Source: an uncultured Enterorhabdus sp. (GTDB taxonomy: Bacteria > Actinomycetota > Coriobacteriia > Coriobacteriales > Eggerthellaceae). From it: DNA of 64,000 bases. Positions within the stretch are counted from its first letter, which is position 1; every line of letters starts with the position of its first letter. Where the stretch lies: positions 1 to 64,000 of the forward strand of contig CANSQM010000003.1 of assembly GCA_947649205.1 (NCBI GenBank), in the 5' to 3' direction. Under the pieces are notes generated by a model. It ran no database searches, was not told where the DNA came from, and was given only the letters and a program-made list of their open reading frames with translations. Below, one piece after another: positions 29,727-63,528 of this stretch. Both the position numbers and the translations under genes were made by a program.

Positions 29727-29768
29727 ATCGCCGAAGACAAGCAAGAGACGGGATTGGGGTGGATCGTT

Positions 29769-30821
29769 TTGAAAAAAATAGATGTGGTCAATCTCATTCA
29801 ATACCATATCGCTAACGACGACATGAGTTTTCGAACGGAAGCCTACAACATCGCACGCGATTTCGATCAGTCGGGAGATGAGGATTTAGCAGCTTACGTC
29901 CTTTCTTTGCTCTCCCCTGTTGGCACCTTCTCATCTCAAACCTACGAGCCTCGCTCGGAATATCTCACAAAGGTAGCCGAAGCCAGCACCTCGCTGCCCC
30001 TCCCTACTTCTATATCAAATGAAATCAAGGGGATCATCAATGCGGTAAACCGCCATCGTGGCGTTAATAAATTTCTCTTTCAAGGCGCACCGGGGACGGG
30101 GAAGACCGAGAGCGTTAAACAAATTGCCCGACTATTAAACCGCACAGTATATGCCGTCGACTTTAGTCGCCTCGTAGACAGCAGGCTCGGACAAACGGGC
30201 AAAAATATCTCAGCACTTTTCACTGAGATTGACCGATTCCCTGATACAGGCGACTTCATTGTATTGCTTGATGAAATCGATGCGCTCGTGCTCGACCGCT
30301 CAAGCGAAAACGACTTACGGGAAATGGGGCGAGCCGCCTCCATCTTTCTGCGAGAATTCGACGCCCTGAGAGATGACATACTCATCATTGCGACGACAAA
30401 CCTCTACGACGGCTTCGACAGAGCCATCATTCGACGCTTCGACTACGTTGTTGACTTCAATCAATACTCCGATGATGACCTTAAGGATATTGCCGAAATA
30501 CTATACATTCAATCATTGGAGCAATTCGGCATAGGCAAAAGGGATCGGCGACTTTTCCGCAAGATCATTGAGTTCTCGGATCACCTGCCCAACCCTGGCG
30601 AACTTGCCAACGCGATCAAAACCTGCATCGCTTTCAGCAATCCAGATGATGATGCAGATTACCTTAAACGGCTCTACCGATTCTTCACAGGCAGGGAAAT
30701 TGCAGATATCGCGCATCTAAGCAAGCAGGGCTTCACCATACGAGAGATCGAAACTCTGACTAATGTCTCCCGAAGCACCATCTCAAGAACCCTAAAGGAG
30801 GCTGAGAATGCGCAGCAATGA
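29769..30821 (+). CDS. ietA: AAA+ ATPase of an IetAS-like defence pair
   Basis: 350-aa AAA+ ATPase. Walker A is GAPGTGKTES (about 107), Walker B IVLLDEIDAL (about 164), a sensor-1 Asn lies in IIATTN (about 207), and an Arg finger is likely in AIIRRFD (about 220). The C-terminus has a helix-turn-helix-like stretch (TIREIETLTNVSRSTISRTLKEAE). The next gene, a subtilisin-like protease, overlaps it by 14 nt. An AAA ATPase plus S8 protease pair is the composition of IetAS, reported as a plasmid-incompatibility and anti-phage system. TTG 29769 is preferred because GGGGTGG precedes it. Confidence 0.85.
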   Translation: MKKIDVVNLIQYHIANDDMSFRTEAYNIARDFDQSGDEDLAAYVLSLLSPVGTFSSQTYEPRSEYLTKVAEASTSLPLPTSISNEIKGIINAVNRHRGVNKFLFQGAPGTGKTESVKQIARLLNRTVYAVDFSRLVDSRLGQTGKNISALFTEIDRFPDTGDFIVLLDEIDALVLDRSSENDLREMGRAASIFLREFDALRDDILIIATTNLYDGFDRAIIRRFDYVVDFNQYSDDDLKDIAEILYIQSLEQFGIGKRDRRLFRKIIEFSDHLPNPGELANAIKTCIAFSNPDDDADYLKRLYRFFTGREIADIAHLSKQGFTIREIETLTNVSRSTISRTLKEAENAQQ

Positions 30822-33096
30822 GTTGCTTGAACTCAAAGGCCGTTTTTCGCAAGCGTCCGGCCCCCAGCCAGGGCCGCCCACTATTCCTGCCGACAAAAGC
30901 GTGCCGTCAGATCATATACGCGACCTCGCAAATCAACTCCGTTCGATAAAAGAATTCTGGCGCCAAAAAAATCTCGGAATCGAGCCCTTGGTCGGTGCCT
31001 ACTACCGCTGCGTGGTGGCAAAAAGCAATCGGGTGCAGAGACTATTTTCATATTCTGTAACGACTTCGAACGCCGCTATAGTCGGTGCTCGGTTTTACGA
31101 GAGTCAAAATTGCCACCCCAAGCATCTCATCACATACAGCGTGCCCGAGATGGATATCGACAAATCCATTCGTGAGCTTGACCAATGCGCCTCAGTTGTC
31201 AATAGTCTCCCAAACCACGAGATATCCGGCCAACTTCTCAGCTCGATCATGAAAACGGCATGCCGAGACGATCTGCAAGGGCTTCCGAAAACCGTCTTCG
31301 GGAAACTCGTCAAAGATGCCTACTATGTTGATAGACTTGGCATCACCTACTTCGACGAAGAGATCCATGGGCCCGCGATCGTATCGCTTTTCAGGGTCAA
31401 TGGCCAAAAAAAAGAGCAGCTACTCACAAAATTTGGAATCGAAGTAAGTTCGTCATCAATCCTCGGAGATGCCATCCTGCTCAATGAGGGAGAATTCCAA
31501 GTCCTCAGAGAAGAGGCGCCCTACCTGATCGCAATGGCCTCCCTCGATGATCTATCCAGTTATTCCCCTGATGACTTCGCAATTGACAAAAAGCGGAGAA
31601 TCCAGCCTACTTCTATTCCCTCTCCTCACGGAGAGCCCACTATCGGCGTCATCGACAAGGGTTTTTTCAGTGAGGTATATTTCGGAAAAGACTGGGTGAC
31701 GTACACGAAAAAGATCGATGACCAATTTGAATTGACCGATGACGACAAAGCCCACGGCACCGCAGTAACCTCCATCATCGTAGATGGGCCACGACTCAAT
31801 CCCGAATACGACGACGGCTGCGGTCACTTCCGGGTGCGCCACTTCTGCGTTGCAAAAGGCGATCATTTCAGCTCGTTTAGCGTCATGAAAAAGATCAGGA
31901 GTATCGTCGACGCCAACCCCGACATTAAAGTTTGGAATCTGTCATTAGGTTCGGAGCTGGCAGTGCGGGCAAATTCCATTTCACCTGAGGCAGCCATACT
32001 TGATCAAATTCAAGCTGAAAAGGGAATCATCTTCGTAGTCGCAGGCACAAACAATACGACCCGCAGAGACGATATGCCTATCGGAGCCCCGGCCGATTCG
32101 ATCAACTCCCTTGTCGTCAATTCGGTAGACCGCAACGGAAACCCAGCAAGTTATTCGCGGCGCGGCCCTGTCCTTTCGTTCTTCGCCAAACCTGATATTA
32201 GCTATTACGGCGGAACCCCTCGCGACCAAATGACCGTTGCAGCCCCCTTTGCCGCCTCCTCGGCATATGGTACTTCTATCGCAGCCCCCTGGATTGCACG
32301 CAAGATGGCTTATCTGATCGAGGTGATGAAGCTGGAGCCTCAAGTCGCAAAAGCTCTCCTCATTCACTCAGCAACGACATGGAGCAAAATACAGCAATCG
32401 AACACCATGGGCTACGGAATCGCTCCTATTCGCATCGAGGACATCCTCTATACTGATCGAGATGAAATTCGATTCGTCATATCTCAAGACCTCAATAGCT
32501 TCCGCACCTACAATCTCAAACTCCCCATACCCACAAAAGACGGTAAGTTTCCCTTCAAAGCTCGGGCAACCCTCTGCTACTTCCCCACTTGCTCCCAAAA
32601 TCAAGGAGTTGATTACACGGACTGCGAGGTTTCGCTCACATTGGGGCGAATGGCCGAGAAAAACGTAAAGAAGCGCGGAGCAAACGGTGAAGAAATTATT
32701 GAAGTAAAACGATACATCAAACCGATCAACAATGACAGCCAAGATATGGAGGGTTCCTACACCGACGAAGACACGGCGCGCCGTTTCTACCGCAAGTGGG
32801 ATAACGTCAAGCATATCGGCGAAATCCTGAAAACCAAAAACCCCGGATGCAAGCAATACGAATCTCAGTTTTGGGGGATAGCCTTCTCCCTCAAAACTCG
32901 ACTCGACGAAAAGCGAGGGCAAACGCTGCGCGTGGGACTGGTTGTCACCCTCAAGGAAGTCACTGGGGCTAATCGATTTGGCGAGTTCCGCTATGGCCTC
33001 GAGGCCAACTCCTGGATCGTCAACCCGATCGACATGCATTCTCGAGCACAAATTGTCGAACGAGCCACAGTAGAAGAGCTAAGATTCGATGAATAG
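30808..33096 (+). CDS. ietS: Subtilisin-like serine protease of an IetAS-like defence pair
   Basis: 762-aa protein: about 270 N-terminal residues of unknown fold, an S8 peptidase domain (about 275-530), and about 230 C-terminal residues. The triad is intact: Asp in GVIDKG (about 283), His in HGTAVTS (about 316), Ser in GTSIAAPW (about 490). No signal peptide is seen, so it acts in the cytoplasm, as expected for a defence effector whose activity is gated by the ATPase. Translationally coupled to ietA. An A8 run sits at 31406-31413. Pairing with ietA makes the IetAS call fairly safe; targets are unknown. Confidence 0.87.
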   Translation: MRSNELLELKGRFSQASGPQPGPPTIPADKSVPSDHIRDLANQLRSIKEFWRQKNLGIEPLVGAYYRCVVAKSNRVQRLFSYSVTTSNAAIVGARFYESQNCHPKHLITYSVPEMDIDKSIRELDQCASVVNSLPNHEISGQLLSSIMKTACRDDLQGLPKTVFGKLVKDAYYVDRLGITYFDEEIHGPAIVSLFRVNGQKKEQLLTKFGIEVSSSSILGDAILLNEGEFQVLREEAPYLIAMASLDDLSSYSPDDFAIDKKRRIQPTSIPSPHGEPTIGVIDKGFFSEVYFGKDWVTYTKKIDDQFELTDDDKAHGTAVTSIIVDGPRLNPEYDDGCGHFRVRHFCVAKGDHFSSFSVMKKIRSIVDANPDIKVWNLSLGSELAVRANSISPEAAILDQIQAEKGIIFVVAGTNNTTRRDDMPIGAPADSINSLVVNSVDRNGNPASYSRRGPVLSFFAKPDISYYGGTPRDQMTVAAPFAASSAYGTSIAAPWIARKMAYLIEVMKLEPQVAKALLIHSATTWSKIQQSNTMGYGIAPIRIEDILYTDRDEIRFVISQDLNSFRTYNLKLPIPTKDGKFPFKARATLCYFPTCSQNQGVDYTDCEVSLTLGRMAEKNVKKRGANGEEIIEVKRYIKPINNDSQDMEGSYTDEDTARRFYRKWDNVKHIGEILKTKNPGCKQYESQFWGIAFSLKTRLDEKRGQTLRVGLVVTLKEVTGANRFGEFRYGLEANSWIVNPIDMHSRAQIVERATVEELRFDE
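31406..31413 (+). repeat. A8 homopolymer inside ietS
   Basis: Eight As at codons 200-202 of the protease gene. In frame here; a slippage-prone length, though far less striking than the two G9 tracts. Confidence 0.5.
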
Positions 33097-33165: not shown

Positions 33166-34638
33166 ATGGCTATTCGCAAAATTACTATCGAAAATCTCCT
33201 GGGAATCAACCGACTAGAATTCGACTTGCCCAGCAAGCCCGATGTCTATCTTCTGGTGGGACCAAATGGCACTGGCAAAACCACACTTCTCACATGCCTA
33301 GACCGCATCAAAAAATCCTATCGCCTTCCCCCAGGGCTTTCCCTCCTCGAAGGGCATTGGAAATATCGATCGATACGACAATGCGTCTATCACATACGAA
33401 TCGAATGCAGGATCTGTAACCTACACTAAAGCACCAGCCAAATGGGCACCCAAACCGCGCGACGGCTCGAAGATCTTAAAAACATTTGGATTGAGCGACA
33501 CAATATACGCACGCGCCGATCACAGTCGCTTGAGTATCTCTTCGCGCGACATAGAAAAAGGCCGATTCATCGAGGCCTCCCGGTTCATCAAGGAGTCTCT
33601 CTGTACTATATTTAACGACAGGAAATTCGAGAACTTGGTGAGATTTAGAGTGGCCCAACGAGGCCCGATCCCTTCTGATTCTCCCTACTTAATCAGACTA
33701 AGTAGGAGCGAATACTACTCTGAGAAGAGGTTCAGTACCGGAGAAATTGCTCTCCTGCGATTAATAGAGAGGCTTGAGAAGGCCTCCAACAATAGTTTGG
33801 TTCTTCTTGATGAAGCGGAACTTGCCCTGCATCCAGAAATACAGCGAAGACTTCTATCCTTTCTCGAGGGGCAGTCGCGCGACAAACAGCTCATTGTGCT
33901 TATAGCCACCCATTCGAATACACTGCTCGTAAACGCCAAGCCCCAGCGCATCATTCTATTACGCAAAACGAACGATAGCATTGAATCGGTCAATCCCTGC
34001 TATCCCGCCGAGGCGATGAGAAGCATCGATCTTTTCGACAGCGTATTGGGCGATTACCTGGTTCTAGTTGAGGATGACGTGGCCCAAAAATGCTTTCAAA
34101 GCATGTGCAGACGAGCTGTAAGAGAAGAGCACTTTGGCAGAGAAGCCCTCTCGCCGATCTTGCCTGTGGGAACTTTTTACGATACGGCAACTTTCGCTAT
34201 TAACATCTCCTTCAAGGTACCGGAATATACCAGCGTTAAAGCCCTCTTAGACCACGACGCTTTTACTGATGAGCGCATCATTGCCCTAAAAGAACGGTAC
34301 GGTGGGATTGTCCACGATCTAGGCTTCACGCCGGAGGAGGAGCTCCTTGAACTCATGGAAAAAACTCCTCAGAATTTGAGGAATACTGCCAAACAGAGTT
34401 TCAAGTAAGCTATCATCAAATAATTGGCTCGCAAAAATATGCAAATGTACTCAAGGAAGATTTTAAAAACCCACGCACGAAGGCAAAAGCACTCTTTTTC
34501 TGTGTCGTAGAGCAAATATCATCCCATGCGGTATTGAGAGAAGAGATCGAGGTCTGCAACAACATCATTGACCACTTGATGGGCTATTACGATATCCAAC
34601 GCATCATGAAACTAGTGCGGGCTATTTTTAAGAAATAA
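33166..34638 (+). pseudogene. Frameshifted OLD-like ATPase/TOPRIM gene
   Basis: Three frame segments together match the intact 489-aa protein at 57318-58787. Frame A (33166 to about 33350) encodes YLLVGPNGTGKTTLLTCLDR with Walker A. A shift near 33350 moves the sequence to frame B, which continues IDRYDNASITYES, the signature FSTGEIALLRL, Walker B LLDEAELALHP and the TOPRIM-like LVEDD and LLDHDAF, then stops at 34408. A second shift at the A6 run 34359-34364 leads to frame C, which continues FEEYCQTEFQ and ends at 34638. Two shifts argue for decay, unless the read quality is poor. It lies 70 nt after ietS. Confidence 0.85.
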
Positions 34639-57317: not shown

Positions 57318-58787
57318 GTGAGCAGCATCACGATCAGCAAACTCAAGGGAATCGAGCACCTCGAGTTCCAAATACCAGATAAACCTGGAGTCTATCTGCT
57401 AGTAGGCAAAAATGGATGTGGGAAAAGCACTTTGCTCACATGCTTGCATCGAATCGGCTTTTCGAACGCTTTCCCGAATGGCTTACCATGTGCCGAGGGT
57501 TCTAGCAAAGTCGATCAATACGCCGACAGTCAAATTACTTACCAGTCTCCCGAAGGAAAAATCGTCTATGGCCGACGCCGCCAAAGATGGATCCCCTCGC
57601 CATACAAACGAGCAAAAGAGGTGCTCGACGGGTTTGGCTTCAGGAGAACAATTTACGCACAAGCAGGCCAGAGCCGACTTCGAGTAACAGCCGATGATAT
57701 TATGGGCGGAAACCTTTACGAGGCTGAAGCATTTATCAGGGAGACGCTAAATGATATCTTCGACGAGACGAAATACTCCTATTTGCAAAGATTGGCAAAA
57801 ACGCGCGGTAGACACTCAAAGGAAGATCCCTACCTGCTGATGGAACCGAGCGGTTCGTGCTATTCGGAAAAACGCTTCAGTTCCGGCGAACTCGCCCTCT
57901 TACGGCTTATTGGTGAGCTGCAAAACCTTGAGCCTCGCAGCCTGATATTGCTTGATGAAGCCGAACTCGCACTGCACCCGGAAGCGCAACGGAAGCTTCT
58001 ATCCGTCTTAAAGAGTCATGCAGAAGAGGGCGACTTGACCATTTTGGTGGCGACGCACTCCACGACCCTTATCGCCAACGAGCCCGCCGAGCAAATCTAT
58101 TTGTTGAAAGAGCAGGAACCTGGAAATATTCAGGTTGTTCATCCTTGCTATCCAGCCGACGCCATGGAAAGCGTAGATGTTTTCGATAGCGTTTTGGGCG
58201 ATTATCTCATTCTTGTAGAGGACGAGATGGCCCAAGGGGCCTGGCGAGCTATGTGTAAACGCACCTTAGCTGAGCAAGAAGATATAATTCCTTTTCAGTA
58301 CAACGTACTTCCTGTAGGCGGTTACTCCGAAACAGCAAAACTGGCGCGGCGAATCAAGGATACACTACCCGACCACACCACCGTGAAAGCCGTGCTCGAC
58401 GCTGATGCCTTTAATAGCAATTCATCGGTTCTTGAGGAGATAATGGAGAAGGATCCGGAATTAGTGCACAACCTTGGCTTCACGCCAGAGGTTGCATTTA
58501 TCGAGGTGATCGAGAAAAACCGCAAGAAACTTGAGTCGGAGTGTCAGTCCACCTTCGGCAGAAGTCTTCGCTCAATTCTGTCCTCTCCAGAATACGCTGA
58601 ACATGAGAAAACGAGGAATCCAAGAAAAGTCGCGAAAAAGAAGTTCGAAAACATCGTGTCCGGCCTGGTCAATCCAATGCTCCTGTCAGAGAGAAGCGTC
58701 GTACAGCATGAAGTGATACCGATGATTGTCGCGCTAATGCCGCTAGAGGCAATATCGGCAACAGTTCGACAAGTATGTCGCAAGTAA
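57318..58787 (+). CDS. OLD-like ATPase with TOPRIM-type C-terminal region
   Basis: 489-aa ABC-type ATPase. Walker A VGKNGCGKST (about 30), signature KRFSSGELALLRL (about 185), Walker B LILLDEAELALHPEAQ (about 210) and the switch His in VATHSTT (about 248) are intact. The second half has YLILVEDEMAQ (about 297) and VLDADAF (about 358), which fit the Glu and DxD metal sites of a TOPRIM nuclease as in OLD-family proteins. GTG 57318 has AGGAG. Intact paralogue of the broken gene at 33166. It faces the reverse transcriptase gene convergently. A DNA-targeting defence role is inferred. Confidence 0.85.
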   Translation: MSSITISKLKGIEHLEFQIPDKPGVYLLVGKNGCGKSTLLTCLHRIGFSNAFPNGLPCAEGSSKVDQYADSQITYQSPEGKIVYGRRRQRWIPSPYKRAKEVLDGFGFRRTIYAQAGQSRLRVTADDIMGGNLYEAEAFIRETLNDIFDETKYSYLQRLAKTRGRHSKEDPYLLMEPSGSCYSEKRFSSGELALLRLIGELQNLEPRSLILLDEAELALHPEAQRKLLSVLKSHAEEGDLTILVATHSTTLIANEPAEQIYLLKEQEPGNIQVVHPCYPADAMESVDVFDSVLGDYLILVEDEMAQGAWRAMCKRTLAEQEDIIPFQYNVLPVGGYSETAKLARRIKDTLPDHTTVKAVLDADAFNSNSSVLEEIMEKDPELVHNLGFTPEVAFIEVIEKNRKKLESECQSTFGRSLRSILSSPEYAEHEKTRNPRKVAKKKFENIVSGLVNPMLLSERSVVQHEVIPMIVALMPLEAISATVRQVCRK

Positions 58788-58823
58788 CTTTTAGTTTTGA
58801 GGTATTCGCGAAACAATGAAAAG

Positions 58824-58862
58824 TGCGCCGGAGAAACCGAGCAGGTCGACTTCTCCGGCGCA
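58824..58862 (-). terminator. Terminator of the reverse transcriptase gene
   Basis: TGCGCCGGAGAA (58824-58835) pairs perfectly with TTCTCCGGCGCA (58851-58862) round a 15-nt loop; on the minus strand a T-rich stretch follows. It separates the converging ATPase and RT genes. Confidence 0.75.
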
Positions 58863-58907
58863 TAGAGGCCACACTATTTCGCAATCCGCGTTCCTTTCAT
58901 GTGTTGC

Positions 58908-60275
58908 CTAGCAATCAGAGTTTCCGGTACGCTTGACACCATTTTGGAAGTCTCTGCGAGAACGTGCTCGTATTTTTCTTTTATGGCGCCTCACATCATT
59001 CAAAATCGGGTCGCTTTCAAAAATCTTCGCTGCTCTGTGGGCGTAAGTCAGAAAGTTGCCGCCACGACGTCCATTAGGATTATGAAGGAGAGAGGTGCTT
59101 CGCCCCCAATCGCTAATAGCAACGTAGAGCCGTCGCACTCTTTTTCGAGAAGGCCGTTCCCCTCCCCCGAACGCTCGCCGCACCTTCCGGTAGGAGCGCC
59201 GATAGTACCTGCCAACGGTCGATTGCCTCATGCGCACCACACCGCCATCGAAGCAAAAACCCAGATAGTCAATTTGGCTCCCATGCGACGCTGCTCTCAT
59301 GGGACGCAGGCAGGAATCAATCCTCGTGACAATTCCGTCCTCAACGCAATACCCGAAGGTCTTTTCAGGATGAAGCATAACGCCCGGAACCCCTGATTGC
59401 TTGATCCCATTCATTAGTTTCCTGTACCCCTCTGCGGTAGGAGCAGCAACGATAAAGTCGTCGGAATAGCGCATGTACAGACCCGACACATTTTTCGCTA
59501 TCTCCTCAATCTTTGCGTCAAACTCAAGCATGTAAATGTTTGCGAGCACTCCACTAACCGGGAGTCCCTGGGCAATTCCGAGGCCGCTCTCTTTCCAAGG
59601 ATGAGTGACGCACTCCTTGACCGTGCTTTTAAATTCCTCGCGCGAAAGAACAACCGCTTTCTTATTAAGCTTCTGAATCCCCTTTCGCGTCACCGGGAGT
59701 TTGTGTCGAGCCAGCAGATCATCTATGGGCCATACTGCATACTTCGTAGCGCTCTTCAGGATGCGATAATAATCATCTGGTATTTTATTGTCATCAAATA
59801 ATGATCGCATCATTCTCTTGAGATAGCCATGGTCCAACGTCTCAAAAAAGCTCTTGAAGTCTCCAACTGCAACCCAGCACTCCCTCTGCTCACGTATATA
59901 CGAAAAAGCTTCGCAAGCATAATTGCAGTTTGACATCCCAGGATGATTAGTTCGATAGGCGATCGATACCCCATCGATGCCGGCATTATACGCCCTAATG
60001 TTGTAAAGGTCATTGAGCAGGGCAGTGTAGTATTGGTAGATGCATCTATCCAAATGGGCGGCGTAACGAATAGGACGCGGATCTTTATGAGGCACTCCCT
60101 CCCGCCATTTTATCCTACGCACCTCTTTGCCAATAAAGGGGTAAAACGAATGGCGAGCCACCCATTGAGGATCCGAAACCAAGTCATAGCAAGAAGCCAA
60201 CGACACACGATGGTCGAAATGTGCATACCCTCTTACGGAGTAGGGCATTTTCAAGCGAGAGAGGGGAATCTTCAT
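58908..60275 (-). CDS. Stand-alone reverse transcriptase (defence-type, group unassigned)
   Basis: 455-aa RNA-directed DNA polymerase. Motif A is VAVGDFKSFFETLDH (about 138), motif B GIAQGLPVSGVLANIYM (about 225), motif C YMRYSDDFIV (YSDD about 270), and motifs D/E appear as HPEKTFGYC and DYLGFCFDGG. The last 130 residues are rich in Arg and may bind nucleic acid. There is no maturase or HNH domain, so it is not a normal group II intron protein; it resembles DRT/UG-type or Abi-like enzymes. ATG 60275 has CAGGA; the frame stays open to 60365. UG class cannot be assigned by eye. Confidence 0.87.
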   Translation of the reverse strand: MKIPLSRLKMPYSVRGYAHFDHRVSLASCYDLVSDPQWVARHSFYPFIGKEVRRIKWREGVPHKDPRPIRYAAHLDRCIYQYYTALLNDLYNIRAYNAGIDGVSIAYRTNHPGMSNCNYACEAFSYIREQRECWVAVGDFKSFFETLDHGYLKRMMRSLFDDNKIPDDYYRILKSATKYAVWPIDDLLARHKLPVTRKGIQKLNKKAVVLSREEFKSTVKECVTHPWKESGLGIAQGLPVSGVLANIYMLEFDAKIEEIAKNVSGLYMRYSDDFIVAAPTAEGYRKLMNGIKQSGVPGVMLHPEKTFGYCVEDGIVTRIDSCLRPMRAASHGSQIDYLGFCFDGGVVRMRQSTVGRYYRRSYRKVRRAFGGGERPSRKRVRRLYVAISDWGRSTSLLHNPNGRRGGNFLTYAHRAAKIFESDPILNDVRRHKRKIRARSRRDFQNGVKRTGNSDC

Positions 60276-60816
60276 ACCGTTATCCTGCCCGGCAGGCCGA
60301 TCTATCAAGGGGCGGCGTCCATTTCGAATCGGCCTGCCTACATATACGACCCGGCATAAAGCCAAAGTCCGTACTCACGCGCAAAGGCGCGAGCAGCCGC
60401 CTTTCGGGTCAAGCCCGTTCCTGCAATCTTCATCTGCGGTACAATTGCCGAAGACGAAGGGAGCATCACCATGAGTTTCACTGTGTTACACATTTGTGCC
60501 ATACAGCTAGCTGATGGAGATTTCGTAGACACAGTTCGAAGTGTGTTTACGATAATGCTCTTCCGCTACGGCCAATTCCGCAGCGCACAATCATGATACC
60601 ACTCCCTGTTAATCAGTGTGGTCGTCAGCATATCGTTGGGGGCATCTTTCACAAGCTGATTGCACGTCACACAACTATTTCTTATTCCGACGACCAGCCC
60701 ATGCGCGACGCAATTCCATTCCCCTTGCCGACAGAGCAAAAGCCAAAGAAGCCGAAGACGGAGGATCATCCTCGCCAGTAACAATCATTAAAGCCTGCAA
60801 GGCGCCTACTTGTACG
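60276..60816. other. Gene-poor 540-nt region upstream of the reverse transcriptase
   Basis: No convincing gene. A 41-codon plus-strand ORF (60471-60596, GGGAG ahead, TACAAT at about 60440 as a -10) and a minus-strand frame to 60338 overlap here. Several stems are visible on the minus strand (CGCGCC-TTTG-GCGCG type near 60377-60391; GGGC-TTGA-GCCC near 60407-60416). Some defence RTs use a structured RNA encoded beside them; this is the natural place for one, without proof. Confidence 0.3.
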
Positions 60817-61554
60817 CTACAGCCCTAGGATTCCATTTATACGGGCGAGTTCTAAAATCCTAACCAACTTTCCAACAGGGTTCTTTCGCTCGTTTTTGTA
60901 AAGAGTCTCGAAAACAGTGAGATACGCCTTCAGCAACCCGTAGACGGCGAAACCTACGGCAAGGATCATTGTCGCAGCATCGCCAGGTGACAGATAGCCA
61001 ATAAGCACCTGCACCAGAGCAAAGGCCACTGCGAGACCGACCGCCCCTTCAACCGCAAATGTACTAGCAATTGCTTCACTCCTTTCAGCCAGAAACGCAT
61101 CTCTCCTCCGAACGCACAGCTCATAAAGAGCCACCCTTTGCCGTACAGAAAGGGCGTGTTCATTCATATAGTTCTCAACGATATGAAGATCTTTTTTCCA
61201 CCTCATCGCTTCGTACTCCGCATATTGGGGAGTCTCCCTCATAAGATCGATCTCATGACCTACTAAACGAATCAGAACAAACACCGATATCGCAAGAATA
61301 GGAATCAATACGCGAAATACGATACCCTCTCTTTCTGGGAACACAGTTCCCAAGGGCAGTCCGAACAATGCCCCACAGATAATACTGCAAAGCGACGCGA
61401 AAATAGAAACGCAAATTAGTTCCTTCATCAAGCCCGTTATTGGCTCATACTGATTCTCTACCCGACCCCACAAATAAGCGCTCAACCGACTTGTGGGCTC
61501 AGTGGCCACCAACTTTTGGTTCAGCTCTTTGATGCTCTCCATGTCAATCTGCAA
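60817..61554 (-). CDS. Four-helix membrane protein of unknown function
   Basis: 245-aa protein. Two helices at about 42-66 and 76-98 (counted from the chosen start) are followed by a cytoplasmic helical segment of about 60 residues (HEIDLMRETPQYAEYEAMRWKKDLHIVENYMNEH) and two further helices at about 160-205. The plan recalls small membrane effectors found in defence loci, but no motif proves that. TTG 61554 is preferred because GGAGGTG lies 7 nt upstream; ATG 61569 would overlap that site. It lies between the RT and the Fic fusion on the same strand. Confidence 0.6.
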   Translation of the reverse strand: MQIDMESIKELNQKLVATEPTSRLSAYLWGRVENQYEPITGLMKELICVSIFASLCSIICGALFGLPLGTVFPEREGIVFRVLIPILAISVFVLIRLVGHEIDLMRETPQYAEYEAMRWKKDLHIVENYMNEHALSVRQRVALYELCVRRRDAFLAERSEAIASTFAVEGAVGLAVAFALVQVLIGYLSPGDAATMILAVGFAVYGLLKAYLTVFETLYKNERKNPVGKLVRILELARINGILGL

Positions 61555-61800
61555 ACCTGTCACCTCCATCCACCTTTAATCCCCGCAAAGACGATCCCGG
61601 CATTCGCATCTCGTCGCCAGCTTTTCTAATCGTACAAAACTTCGCCCGCATCGCACGAACAACGCCCATCAAATGACTGGATTTTCACGACAGATAATAA
61701 GATGGTCGCGCGCCCCTATGCAATGCCACGTCACAAGAGCGTCAGAAGTGTGCCGTTGCGGCGGTTTTGATACCTACCCACATTATTGCCCTGCTCGAGG

Positions 61801-63171
61801 CTAGAGCAGGCTGCCCGTAAATATCGCATGGGCTTTGAGCATCTCTTTATAGTAAAGTTCGTAAAGAGCGTCTCGATTCCCCGTTTCATCTGCTTTGCCG
61901 AGAGCATCTTTGTACAGATCCTTTGTTTCGTCAGTGAAAAGAACCGGGGGAAGACCCCTTCTCAAGAACATTAAGTTTGCAAACGCTCTCAACGAACGAC
62001 CATTACCGTCCCGAAATGGGTGCACGACAGTAAGGCCATGATGGATATCCAAGACGCGCTCAAGGTACTCGCTCGGTAGCAAAGAATCGCTATTAGCCAC
62101 AAATGCGTCAATCTCCTTGCCCTTGAAATACATCTCTTGAACCACGCGACGATAGTCCACTGTCTCGAACTTGCCCCCAAGAACGAAAGTGTTTGCCTGC
62201 CGAAATGCGCCACCAAATTCCGGATGCCTCGCTGCCGAGAATAGGAGCTTGTTGATCTCTGTTGCATCATAGATTACCAACGGGCCGGCCGACATCGCCT
62301 TCCTAAAGACCCAGTCGTAAGCCGATGCCAAGCCCGCCACCTCAACAATGTTTTGGTTTTCTTCACTGTAAAACTTACTACGGCTGCCGTTCAATCTCAA
62401 GTCAACGACTATTTCCGCAGCAAGCTCCCTCTCGACGACCACGCCTTCCATTCGACTATCGTGAAATACATACTCTGTTTCAAATATCTGCTTCGTTTGG
62501 GGCGAGGGCTCCACTCTCAGAAACAGCTCTGAGGCGTCGTACAATTGACGATACAGGGGAACGTCGCTCAGGCCCAATTCAGCTCGATGGGCCATAGGAC
62601 CAAACTCGCTGCGCCTCTGCCTCAGCGCAGCCCCAGTGACATCGCCATCAATGACATGGAAATCGAAGGCAAGTCGATTCAGACACGCCGCGAAACTAAC
62701 ACCGAAATAATCGGCTATCTTCAAGGCGCTCTCGAAGCTTACAAAACCGTTGACCTTATATTCGTCCACCTGCTCACGAAAGAGCGATGATGGCATGAGC
62801 AGCGCCGCAGCGAATGCCTCGGCATAGCGCTCGATGTCATTGTCCAATGCAGTCGAGCACATATAACCTGTATCAGCATCTTTTATGTGATGACACAGTT
62901 CGTGAGAGGCAGTGTATCGCTGGCGCGTTACAGGACGATTCGCGTTAATGCCTACCACGGGCGCATCGTCATCGCCCTCGGCAGGAATATATACACCCTC
63001 GTAATTCGAAAAGTTCCGAAAAGAGAACACTATGCCCATATCCCGGAGAATCTCAAAAGGATTCACCGGGATAGAAGGCTCTTGTCCAGAATAATAGTCA
63101 GAAATAAAAGCCTCGGCCAGCTGTTCCGGAGAGGCTCCATCCCGCGCCATGCGCGCATAATCAACAGTCAA
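61801..63171 (-). CDS. ImmA/IrrE metallopeptidase - Fic domain fusion
   Basis: 456-aa two-domain protein. Residues about 5-180 are an ImmA/IrrE-type zinc peptidase with HELCHH (His about 90) and a following Glu-rich helix (ERYAEAFAAALLMP). Residues about 230-450 are a Fic domain: HDSRMEG at about 245 resembles the inhibitory helix motif, and HPFRDGNGRSLRAF (His about 384) is the complete catalytic loop for AMP transfer from ATP. The start is TTG 63171, with GAGG upstream, just after the XRE gene. XRE plus ImmA is a known regulator-protease pair; joining it to Fic suggests a toxin whose action is tied to proteolysis. Confidence 0.88.
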   Translation of the reverse strand: MTVDYARMARDGASPEQLAEAFISDYYSGQEPSIPVNPFEILRDMGIVFSFRNFSNYEGVYIPAEGDDDAPVVGINANRPVTRQRYTASHELCHHIKDADTGYMCSTALDNDIERYAEAFAAALLMPSSLFREQVDEYKVNGFVSFESALKIADYFGVSFAACLNRLAFDFHVIDGDVTGAALRQRRSEFGPMAHRAELGLSDVPLYRQLYDASELFLRVEPSPQTKQIFETEYVFHDSRMEGVVVERELAAEIVVDLRLNGSRSKFYSEENQNIVEVAGLASAYDWVFRKAMSAGPLVIYDATEINKLLFSAARHPEFGGAFRQANTFVLGGKFETVDYRRVVQEMYFKGKEIDAFVANSDSLLPSEYLERVLDIHHGLTVVHPFRDGNGRSLRAFANLMFLRRGLPPVLFTDETKDLYKDALGKADETGNRDALYELYYKEMLKAHAIFTGSLL

Positions 63172-63172
63172 C

Positions 63173-63487
63173 TTAGCCTCGAGCTTTCACCGCACGCTTG
63201 AACTCCATCAAATTGAGAATCTCTCTTTGGTCCTCTTCATCAAGCTGGTCAAAGCATCGCGCAAAAACTTGGCTGGGAGCTGCAGCCGCCCTGCCATGCA
63301 AAAGTTCGTCAACCGAAACAAGAAACAGCTTACTCAGGTCATCGAGCTCTTTGGCAGAAACCTTCCGACGTCCCGCCTCGATATCTGCAACTGCAGAACG
63401 ACCGATGCCAAGGTAGTCCGCAACATATTGTTGAGAGAGATGGAGCTTCGTTCTCGCAGCTTTTATACGTACGCACAACTCAGACAT
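63173..63487 (-). CDS. XRE-family transcriptional regulator
   Basis: 104-aa protein with an N-terminal helix-turn-helix (AARTKLHLSQQYVADYLGIGRSAVADIEAGRRKVSAKELDDLSKLF, about 8-55) and a short C-terminal extension containing the SQVFARCFDQLDEEDQREILNLMEFKRA helix. ATG 63487 has AAGGAGG. First gene of the pair with the ImmA-Fic fusion, 1 nt apart. Presumably it represses its own promoter (repeats at 63529-63566) and is cleaved or bound by the ImmA domain. Confidence 0.9.
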   Translation of the reverse strand: MSELCVRIKAARTKLHLSQQYVADYLGIGRSAVADIEAGRRKVSAKELDDLSKLFLVSVDELLHGRAAAAPSQVFARCFDQLDEEDQREILNLMEFKRAVKARG

Positions 63488-63528
63488 ACTTCCTCCTTCA
63501 CTCTGTCTGACGATCATCTCATACTATG

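What the first reader, a model, noticed from the sequence alone, without database searches (positions are those of the whole stretch)
57318..60816. Reverse transcriptase facing an OLD-like nuclease, with a gene-poor stretch upstream
The RT has intact YSDD and no intron features, and 540 nt on its 5' side hold no good gene but several stems. The intact ATPase/TOPRIM-type gene converges on it across a shared terminator. This could be an RT defence system with its own non-coding RNA, with the nuclease as partner or neighbour. Its class could not be assigned, so it may be a new subtype.
Basis: partly seen in the sequence, partly recalled or inferred. Interest (0 to 1): 0.66.

Follow-up and report, generated by a model that had tools for sequence, protein, structure and literature searches.

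The report
Divergent DRT2 antiviral reverse transcriptase system
A gut-type actinobacterium carries a distant version of the DRT2 anti-virus system, in which a reverse transcriptase is predicted to copy a small RNA round and round into a brand-new repetitive gene for a growth-stopping protein, here using a different 'jump' sequence from the one known in Klebsiella.

Summary
The RT (58908-60275, -) is DRT2, not an unclassifiable RT: PADLOC Drt2 408 bits against 69 for the next family, predicted fold best matched by DRT2 9c0i. It is divergent: below NCBI's Drt2 cut-off and in a Coriobacteriia/Bacillota clade apart from the Klebsiella type. The 'gene-poor' stretch holds the ncRNA, conserved with 19 compensatory pairs in four genomes. 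Inside it I predict a 129-nt rolling-circle template (60428-60556). Its concatemer builds TTTACG-17 bp-TACAAT across the repeat junction, then SD-ATG and a stop-free 43-aa Neo repeat. No such feature this good occurs in 834 other stretches of window DNA. The geometry recurs in homologues, but the jump motif is ATT/ACT instead of the published ACA, whose rule finds no Neo in the coriobacterial relatives. The source preprint says Neo annotation in divergent DRT2 clades was 'more challenging'; this offers a testable solution for this branch. The ATPase-TOPRIM gene is intact but found beside no other DRT2 examined: a neighbour, not a partner. No mechanism step was assayed.

The parts
58908..60275 (-). 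DRT2-family reverse transcriptase, 455 aa from ATG at 60275 (open frame begins at 60365), YSDD active site
60280..60595 (-). DRT2 ncRNA (ends approximate), conserved with compensatory base changes in L039, L040, L041
60564..60585 (-). 5' handle hairpin of the ncRNA (CGCTGCGG...CCGTAGCG), 4 pairs with double changes among relatives
60428..60556 (-). Predicted reverse-transcription template, 129 nt; its reverse complement is one neo repeat (43 codons, stop-free when concatenated)
60554..60556 (-). ATT-1, 5' jump motif (position of ACA-1 in Klebsiella DRT2)
60425..60427 (-). ATT-2, 3' jump motif just outside the template (position of ACA-2)
60546..60551 (+). -35-like TTTACG of the neo promoter, 17 bp from the -10 only after concatenation
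60440..60445 (+). -10-like TACAAT of the neo promoter
60459..60463 (+). Shine-Dalgarno GGGAG of neo
60471..60473 (+). ATG start of the Neo repeat MSFTVLHICAIQLADGDFVDTVRSVFTIIFICGTIAEDEGSIT
60396..60401 (-). 5' strand of predicted pseudoknot (GGCGGC)
   Evidence: complementarity kept with changes among relatives, but length alone is not significant against shuffles
60311..60316 (-). 3' strand of predicted pseudoknot (GCCGCC), in the loop of the terminal hairpin
60291..60338 (-). Terminal (tower-like) hairpin of the ncRNA scaffold
58824..58862 (-). Intrinsic-terminator-like hairpin after the RT
57318..58787 (+). Neighbour, not part of the system: OLD/retron I-B-like ATPase-TOPRIM protein, 489 aa

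Best explanation
This is a stand-alone two-component DRT2 system (RT plus upstream pseudoknotted ncRNA) of a divergent Coriobacteriia/Bacillota branch. The RT binds the ncRNA. On phage infection it copies the 129-nt template and, at its 5' end, the nascent cDNA end ...AAT re-pairs from ATT-1 to ATT-2, so copying starts over (rolling-circle reverse transcription). Each junction brings TTTACG and TACAAT to 17 bp, making a promoter that does not exist in that order in the chromosome. The double-stranded repeat DNA is transcribed and translated from an SD-ATG into an endless 43-aa-repeat Neo protein that arrests the cell and aborts infection. Shown here by sequence: RT identity, ncRNA conservation, stop-free repeat, junction promoter geometry and their recurrence. 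Inferred from the Klebsiella system: RNA binding, phage trigger, jumping, second strand, Neo toxicity.
For: RT: PADLOC Drt2 1.4e-122; only DRT2 chains give strong PDB sequence hits (1e-49); AlphaFold model pLDDT 86.5 with DRT2 9c0i top at E 2.4e-29, TM 0.75/0.80, next DRT9 2e-11; tree. ncRNA: 95% of cells paired and 19 pairs with double changes, against 7.3 in shuffles and 0-4 when slid. Neo: the unprompted scan ranks the 129-nt ATT unit first in the window. At that score 3/200 shuffles pass for the window; 0/200 for the relatives L045, L047, L005, L008 and L007; the opposite strand gives none. Restricted to the observed geometry, 0/834 other window stretches reach its score. Same geometry in L039, L040, L041 (129 nt), L044-L047 (138 nt), L005 (141 nt, perfect TTGACA-17-TATAAT), L008 (147 nt). 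Positive control: the same scan recovers the published ACA/117-nt unit with 12/12 promoters in L052, L054-L056.
Against: No expression or biochemical data. The window promoter is only 9/12 and that of L039-L041 8/12. A second junction (GAAGA, 132 nt) is also stop-free in the window, L039 and L040. Codon-position patterns between relatives do not show coding selection. L044, L046 and L041 need one wobble pair at the jump; L043 and four Paenibacillus loci are not resolved by the strict geometry. Pseudoknot length is not significant alone. The RT misses NCBI's Drt2 cut-off (319 against 390 bits).
Confidence: 0.77

Rival explanations
1. DRT2 with the same mechanism, but the jump uses the 5-nt GAAGA repeat, giving a 132-nt (44-codon) unit.
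For: GAAGA/GAAGA at distance 132 in the window, L039 and L040; stop-free in the same frame; junction promoter ACGATA or ACGACA-17-TACAAT or CACAAT, 8/12.
Against: L041 has only GAA, at distance 129. The 5+12 nt promoter geometry shared with L044-L047, L005 and L008 fits ATT/ACT, not GAAGA. Promoter score 8 against 9 in the window.
Confidence: 0.13
2. DRT2-like RT whose ncRNA-templated cDNA acts without a Neo protein (for example as repeat DNA, like DRT9 or DRT10 products); the open frame and promoter are by-products of RNA structure.
For: The preprint allowed for alternative mechanisms in divergent DRT2 clades (PMC11100668). Codon-substitution tests are inconclusive.
Against: SD-ATG, stop-free frame, unit divisible by three and 17-bp junction promoter recur together at homologous places in lineages with RTs about 36-52% identical to the window's.
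Confidence: 0.12
3. RT and the convergent ATPase-TOPRIM nuclease form one defence system with the nuclease as effector.
For: Adjacent, convergent and intact; best PADLOC match of the ATPase is a retron I-B ATPase-TOPRIM (3e-35).
Against: Beside the other DRT2 loci examined no homologue lies, apart from one weak 28% match to the ATPase core in L063. A partial paralogue sits elsewhere in the window, at 33172-34408, beside IetAS. DRT2 needs only RT and ncRNA (PMC12039810).
Confidence: 0.04
4. The RT belongs to a group II intron, retron or unrelated RT class.
For: General RT homology (Pfam RVT_1).
Against: 408 bits for Drt2 against at most 69 bits for any other family in PADLOC; group II maturase 58 bits against a cut-off of 300; fold search.
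Confidence: 0.01

Closest known systems
KpnDRT2 (Klebsiella pneumoniae DRT2/UG2 with Neo; PMC12039810, PMC11100668)
   Same: Stand-alone RT with an upstream ncRNA of about 300 nt; 5' handle hairpin, central template, 3' hairpins and predicted pseudoknot; repeat unit divisible by three; promoter made across the junction with 17-bp spacing; SD-ATG; stop-free repeat.
   Different: The window RT aligns over its whole length but at low identity (27% in the structural alignment); YSDD instead of YCDD; jump motif ATT/ATT instead of ACA/ACA; junction placed 5+12 instead of 6+11 nt from -35/-10; unit 129 nt instead of 120; no evident similarity of the Neo sequence; weaker consensus promoter.
Gordonibacter pamelaeae and other Eggerthellaceae homologues (L002/L041, L039, L040)
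   Same: RT 47-52% identical, ncRNA alignable along its length, same 129-nt unit and junction geometry.
   Different: L041 pairs ACT with ATT through one wobble; Neo sequences about 55-64% identical to the window's.
Other coriobacterial (L044-L047) and Bacillota (L005, L008) DRT2
   Same: Same geometry: -35, 5 nt, junction, 12 nt, -10; SD-ATG; A[TC]T-type jump motif (L046 pairs ATC with ATT through one wobble).
   Different: Units of 138, 141 and 147 nt; better -35 elements (TTGACG or TTGACA).
DRT9, DRT10, retrons
   Same: Defence RTs with ncRNA.
   Different: Low sequence and fold scores for DRT9 and retrons here (DRT10 not compared); their published products are not Neo-type genes.

Membership tests
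DRT2 (UG2) | RT of the Drt2 sequence family | tested here: met
   PADLOC Drt2 408.3 bits over almost the whole profile; DRT2 is the top PDB sequence and fold match. Caveat: NCBIfam NF041746 319 bits, below its equivalog cut-off of 390.
DRT2 (UG2) | Groups with Klebsiella DRT2 in a tree against other RT classes | tested here: inconclusive
   The tree holds DRT2 relatives only; the window lies in a supported 17-row branch apart from the Klebsiella-type branch. Other RT classes were compared by HMM score, not by tree.
DRT2 (UG2) | Intact RT active site | tested here: met
   Catalytic aspartates D139, D272 and D273 invariant among 25 homologues.
DRT2 (UG2) | Structured ncRNA directly upstream on the same strand | tested here: met
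   Fold z-score -3.07; 19 pairs with compensatory change.
DRT2 (UG2) | Pseudoknot in the 3' scaffold | tested here: inconclusive
   Complementary strands at a conserved place with covarying bases (GGCGGC/GCCGCC, GGCGGT/ACCGCC, GGGTGAT/ATCACCC), but not significant by length alone.
DRT2 (UG2) | ACA-1/ACA-2 motifs flanking the template | tested here: not met
   No ACA..ACA unit fulfils the Neo criteria in the window or its coriobacterial relatives; ATT or ACT takes the place. This defines the Klebsiella-type subclade, not the RT family.
DRT2 (UG2) | Concatemer unit divisible by 3, stop-free, with junction promoter and SD-ATG | tested here: met
DRT2 (UG2) | Phage-triggered concatemeric cDNA, Neo expression and abortive infection | not testable with these tools
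   Needs experiments.
Group II intron RT | Maturase family score and intron RNA | tested here: not met
   58 bits against a cut-off of 300; no Rfam intron.
Retron type I-B (ATPase-TOPRIM effector) | Retron RT with msr/msd beside the ATPase-TOPRIM | tested here: not met
   The RT is Drt2, and retron RT scores are at most about 45 bits; no Rfam hit.

The most novel reading that the evidence does not exclude
The DRT2 template jump needs no particular sequence: ACA, ATT, ACT (and perhaps GTT) are interchangeable provided the two copies can pair, so the jump motif has drifted between clades while unit length modulo 3 and the 17-bp junction promoter were kept. Neo synthesis would then be general to DRT2, and the missing Neo proteins in divergent clades were an artefact of the ACA rule.
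Probability: 0.55. Interest if true: 0.62.

Novelty: new variant of a known kind. Interest (0 to 1): 0.52.

Why it matters
Neo synthesis is known from Klebsiella-type DRT2; the authors reported that Neo was harder to annotate in divergent clades and proposed that other mechanisms may operate there. A concrete, coordinate-level prediction in a distant branch of gut Actinomycetota and Bacillota, with a different jump motif, makes that question directly testable. It also separates what is essential (pairing at the jump, length divisible by three, promoter spacing) from what is incidental (ACA). For annotation: such genes are invisible in the chromosome and would be missed by ORF callers and by the published ACA rule.

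Tried and rejected
Scan of viral contigs with the window RT alone: nothing; with the alignment: 8 relatives, several of them ACA-type controls. Exact ncRNA 20-mer in viral contigs: nothing. Codon-position and synonymous-change tests of Neo: inconclusive (one search compared L039/L040 from the wrong ATG, corrected). Own-against-swapped and shuffled test of pseudoknot length: not significant. ATPase, membrane protein, Fic/M78 and HTH as partners: no conserved neighbourhood. My first junction guesses by longest microhomology (CATTGT 111 nt, TATCGCA 111 nt) were dropped because they put the -35 outside the unit or spoil the spacing.

Full report
WHAT IS THERE. The RT frame 58908-60365 (-) is open; the best start is ATG at 60275 (MKIPLSRLKMPYSVRGYAHFDHRV..., 455 aa), just after a GGCAGG stretch and at the place where L041 starts as well. 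Its active site is YSDD, and the catalytic aspartates are invariant among 25 homologues. The ATPase-TOPRIM gene (57318-58787, +) is intact: by reading, the Walker A GKNGCGKST, the Walker B-like LILLDEAELALHP, and the TOPRIM residues LVEDE and VLDADAF. The hairpin between them has its T tract only on the RT strand.

WHICH RT. PADLOC Drt2 scores 408 bits (1.4e-122), the next family 69 bits. NCBIfam Drt2 scores 319 bits, below the equivalog cut-off of 390, so this model alone would not name it. PDB sequence search finds only DRT2 chains strongly (1e-49). The AlphaFold model (pLDDT 86.5) matches DRT2 9c0i at E 2.4e-29, TM 0.75/0.80, and DRT9 next at 2e-11. In a tree of 42 DRT2 relatives the window sits in a supported branch of Eggerthellaceae, other coriobacterial families, Paenibacillus, Desulfosporosinus and one gut phage scaffold, apart from the proteobacterial Klebsiella-type branch. 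It is rare: 6 of 138 genomes of its family, 10 of 398 of its class.

THE ncRNA. The upstream stretch folds better than 99 of 100 shuffles (z -3.07). It aligns along its length with L039, L040 and L041. The consensus structure has 91 pairs: 95% of cells are paired, and 19 pairs show change on both sides, against a shuffle mean of 7.3 and 0-4 in slid versions. Only four sequences enter and the structure was derived from them, so this is strong but not independent. The 5' handle, the template helices and the terminal hairpin all carry compensatory changes. A pseudoknot between GGCGGC (60401-60396) and the terminal loop GCCGCC (60316-60311) recurs with covarying bases, though its length is not significant alone.

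THE HIDDEN GENE. In Klebsiella DRT2 a ~120-nt template flanked by ACA motifs is copied in rounds. The concatemer has a -35/-10 pair 17 bp apart across each junction, an SD-ATG and a stop-free frame (PMC12039810, PMC11100668). I scanned each upstream region for units of 90-156 nt, divisible by three, with a 3-nt match at the jump, a junction-spanning promoter and a stop-free SD-start frame. In the window the top hit is 129 nt, ATT/ATT, TTTACG-17-TACAAT, Neo repeat MSFTVLHICAIQLADGDFVDTVRSVFTIIFICGTIAEDEGSIT. Both other frames of that strand contain stops. The ATT junction was first reached by hand, by comparing promoter spacing among relatives, and then recovered by the scan.

HOW SURE. Dinucleotide shuffles reach the observed score in 3/200 (window), 6/200 (L039), 7/200 (L041), 0/200 (L045, L047, L005, L007, L008); the opposite strand yields nothing. 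These loci are related, so the numbers must not be multiplied. In the remaining window DNA 2 of 834 stretches reach the score without, and 0 of 834 with, the geometry restriction. The geometry (-35, 5 nt, junction, 12 nt, -10) recurs in L039, L040, L041, L044-L047, L005 and L008, in L005 with a perfect consensus promoter. As a positive control the scan returns the published ACA/117-nt unit with 12/12 promoters in viral loci L052, L054-L056. The ACA rule applied to the window and its coriobacterial relatives returns nothing. Weak points: three relatives need one wobble pair, L043 and the Paenibacillus L003/L004/L006/L007 group are not resolved, a GAAGA/132-nt junction is possible, and codon substitution patterns are uninformative.

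NEIGHBOURS. None of ATPase-TOPRIM, the 250-aa membrane protein, Fic/M78 or HTH has a clear homologue beside the DRT2 loci examined (one weak 28% match to the ATPase core in L063). The system is therefore read as RT plus ncRNA, like Klebsiella DRT2, inside a region with other defence-type genes.

WHAT IS SHOWN AND WHAT IS INFERRED. Shown by sequence: RT family, ncRNA conservation, stop-free unit, junction promoter, recurrence, absence of ACA. Inferred by analogy: transcription of the ncRNA, RT binding, phage trigger, ATT-guided jumping, second-strand synthesis, Neo expression and toxicity, abortive infection. What it works like: Klebsiella DRT2 (0.77). Whether it is a member: yes for the DRT2 RT family; no for the ACA-motif subclade.

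NOVELTY. Searches of the held literature found no account of Neo or of a non-ACA jump motif in actinobacterial or Bacillota DRT2; most subscription papers are outside the library and supplements could not be read, so an existing report is possible.

Noticed in passing
window 29754-33096 (+): AAA ATPase plus subtilase pair matching PADLOC IetA (1.7e-34) and IetS (1.2e-65): a likely IetAS defence system.
   Followed up: partly
window 33172-34408 (+): Truncated or frameshifted paralogue (43% identical) of the ATPase-TOPRIM gene at 57318-58787, directly after IetAS.
   Followed up: partly
window 61801-63517 (-): ImmA/IrrE (M78)-Fic fusion next to an HTH protein; best PADLOC matches capP (3e-23) and capH (2e-12), the DNA-damage-type regulator pair seen with CBASS, here fused to a Fic domain.
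   Followed up: no
window 60817-61569 (-): 250-aa membrane-like protein without any Pfam, NCBIfam or PADLOC match, between the ncRNA and the Fic gene.
   Followed up: no
L048 (MT839204) 466-1107: Gut phage scaffold with a DRT2 of this branch and a second, weak RT-like match on the other strand 1.6 kb away.
   Followed up: no
L043 upstream of the RT at 1501-2814: Long-branch Eggerthellaceae DRT2 whose best scan hit uses GTT at the jump, a 120-nt unit, TTGACA-17-TATACT and a GTG start: possibly a further jump motif.
   Followed up: partly
window 60526-60553 (+): A 9/12 promoter-like pair (TAGACA-16-TACGAT) lies wholly inside the template on the antisense strand; it could fire antisense to the ncRNA.
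   Followed up: no
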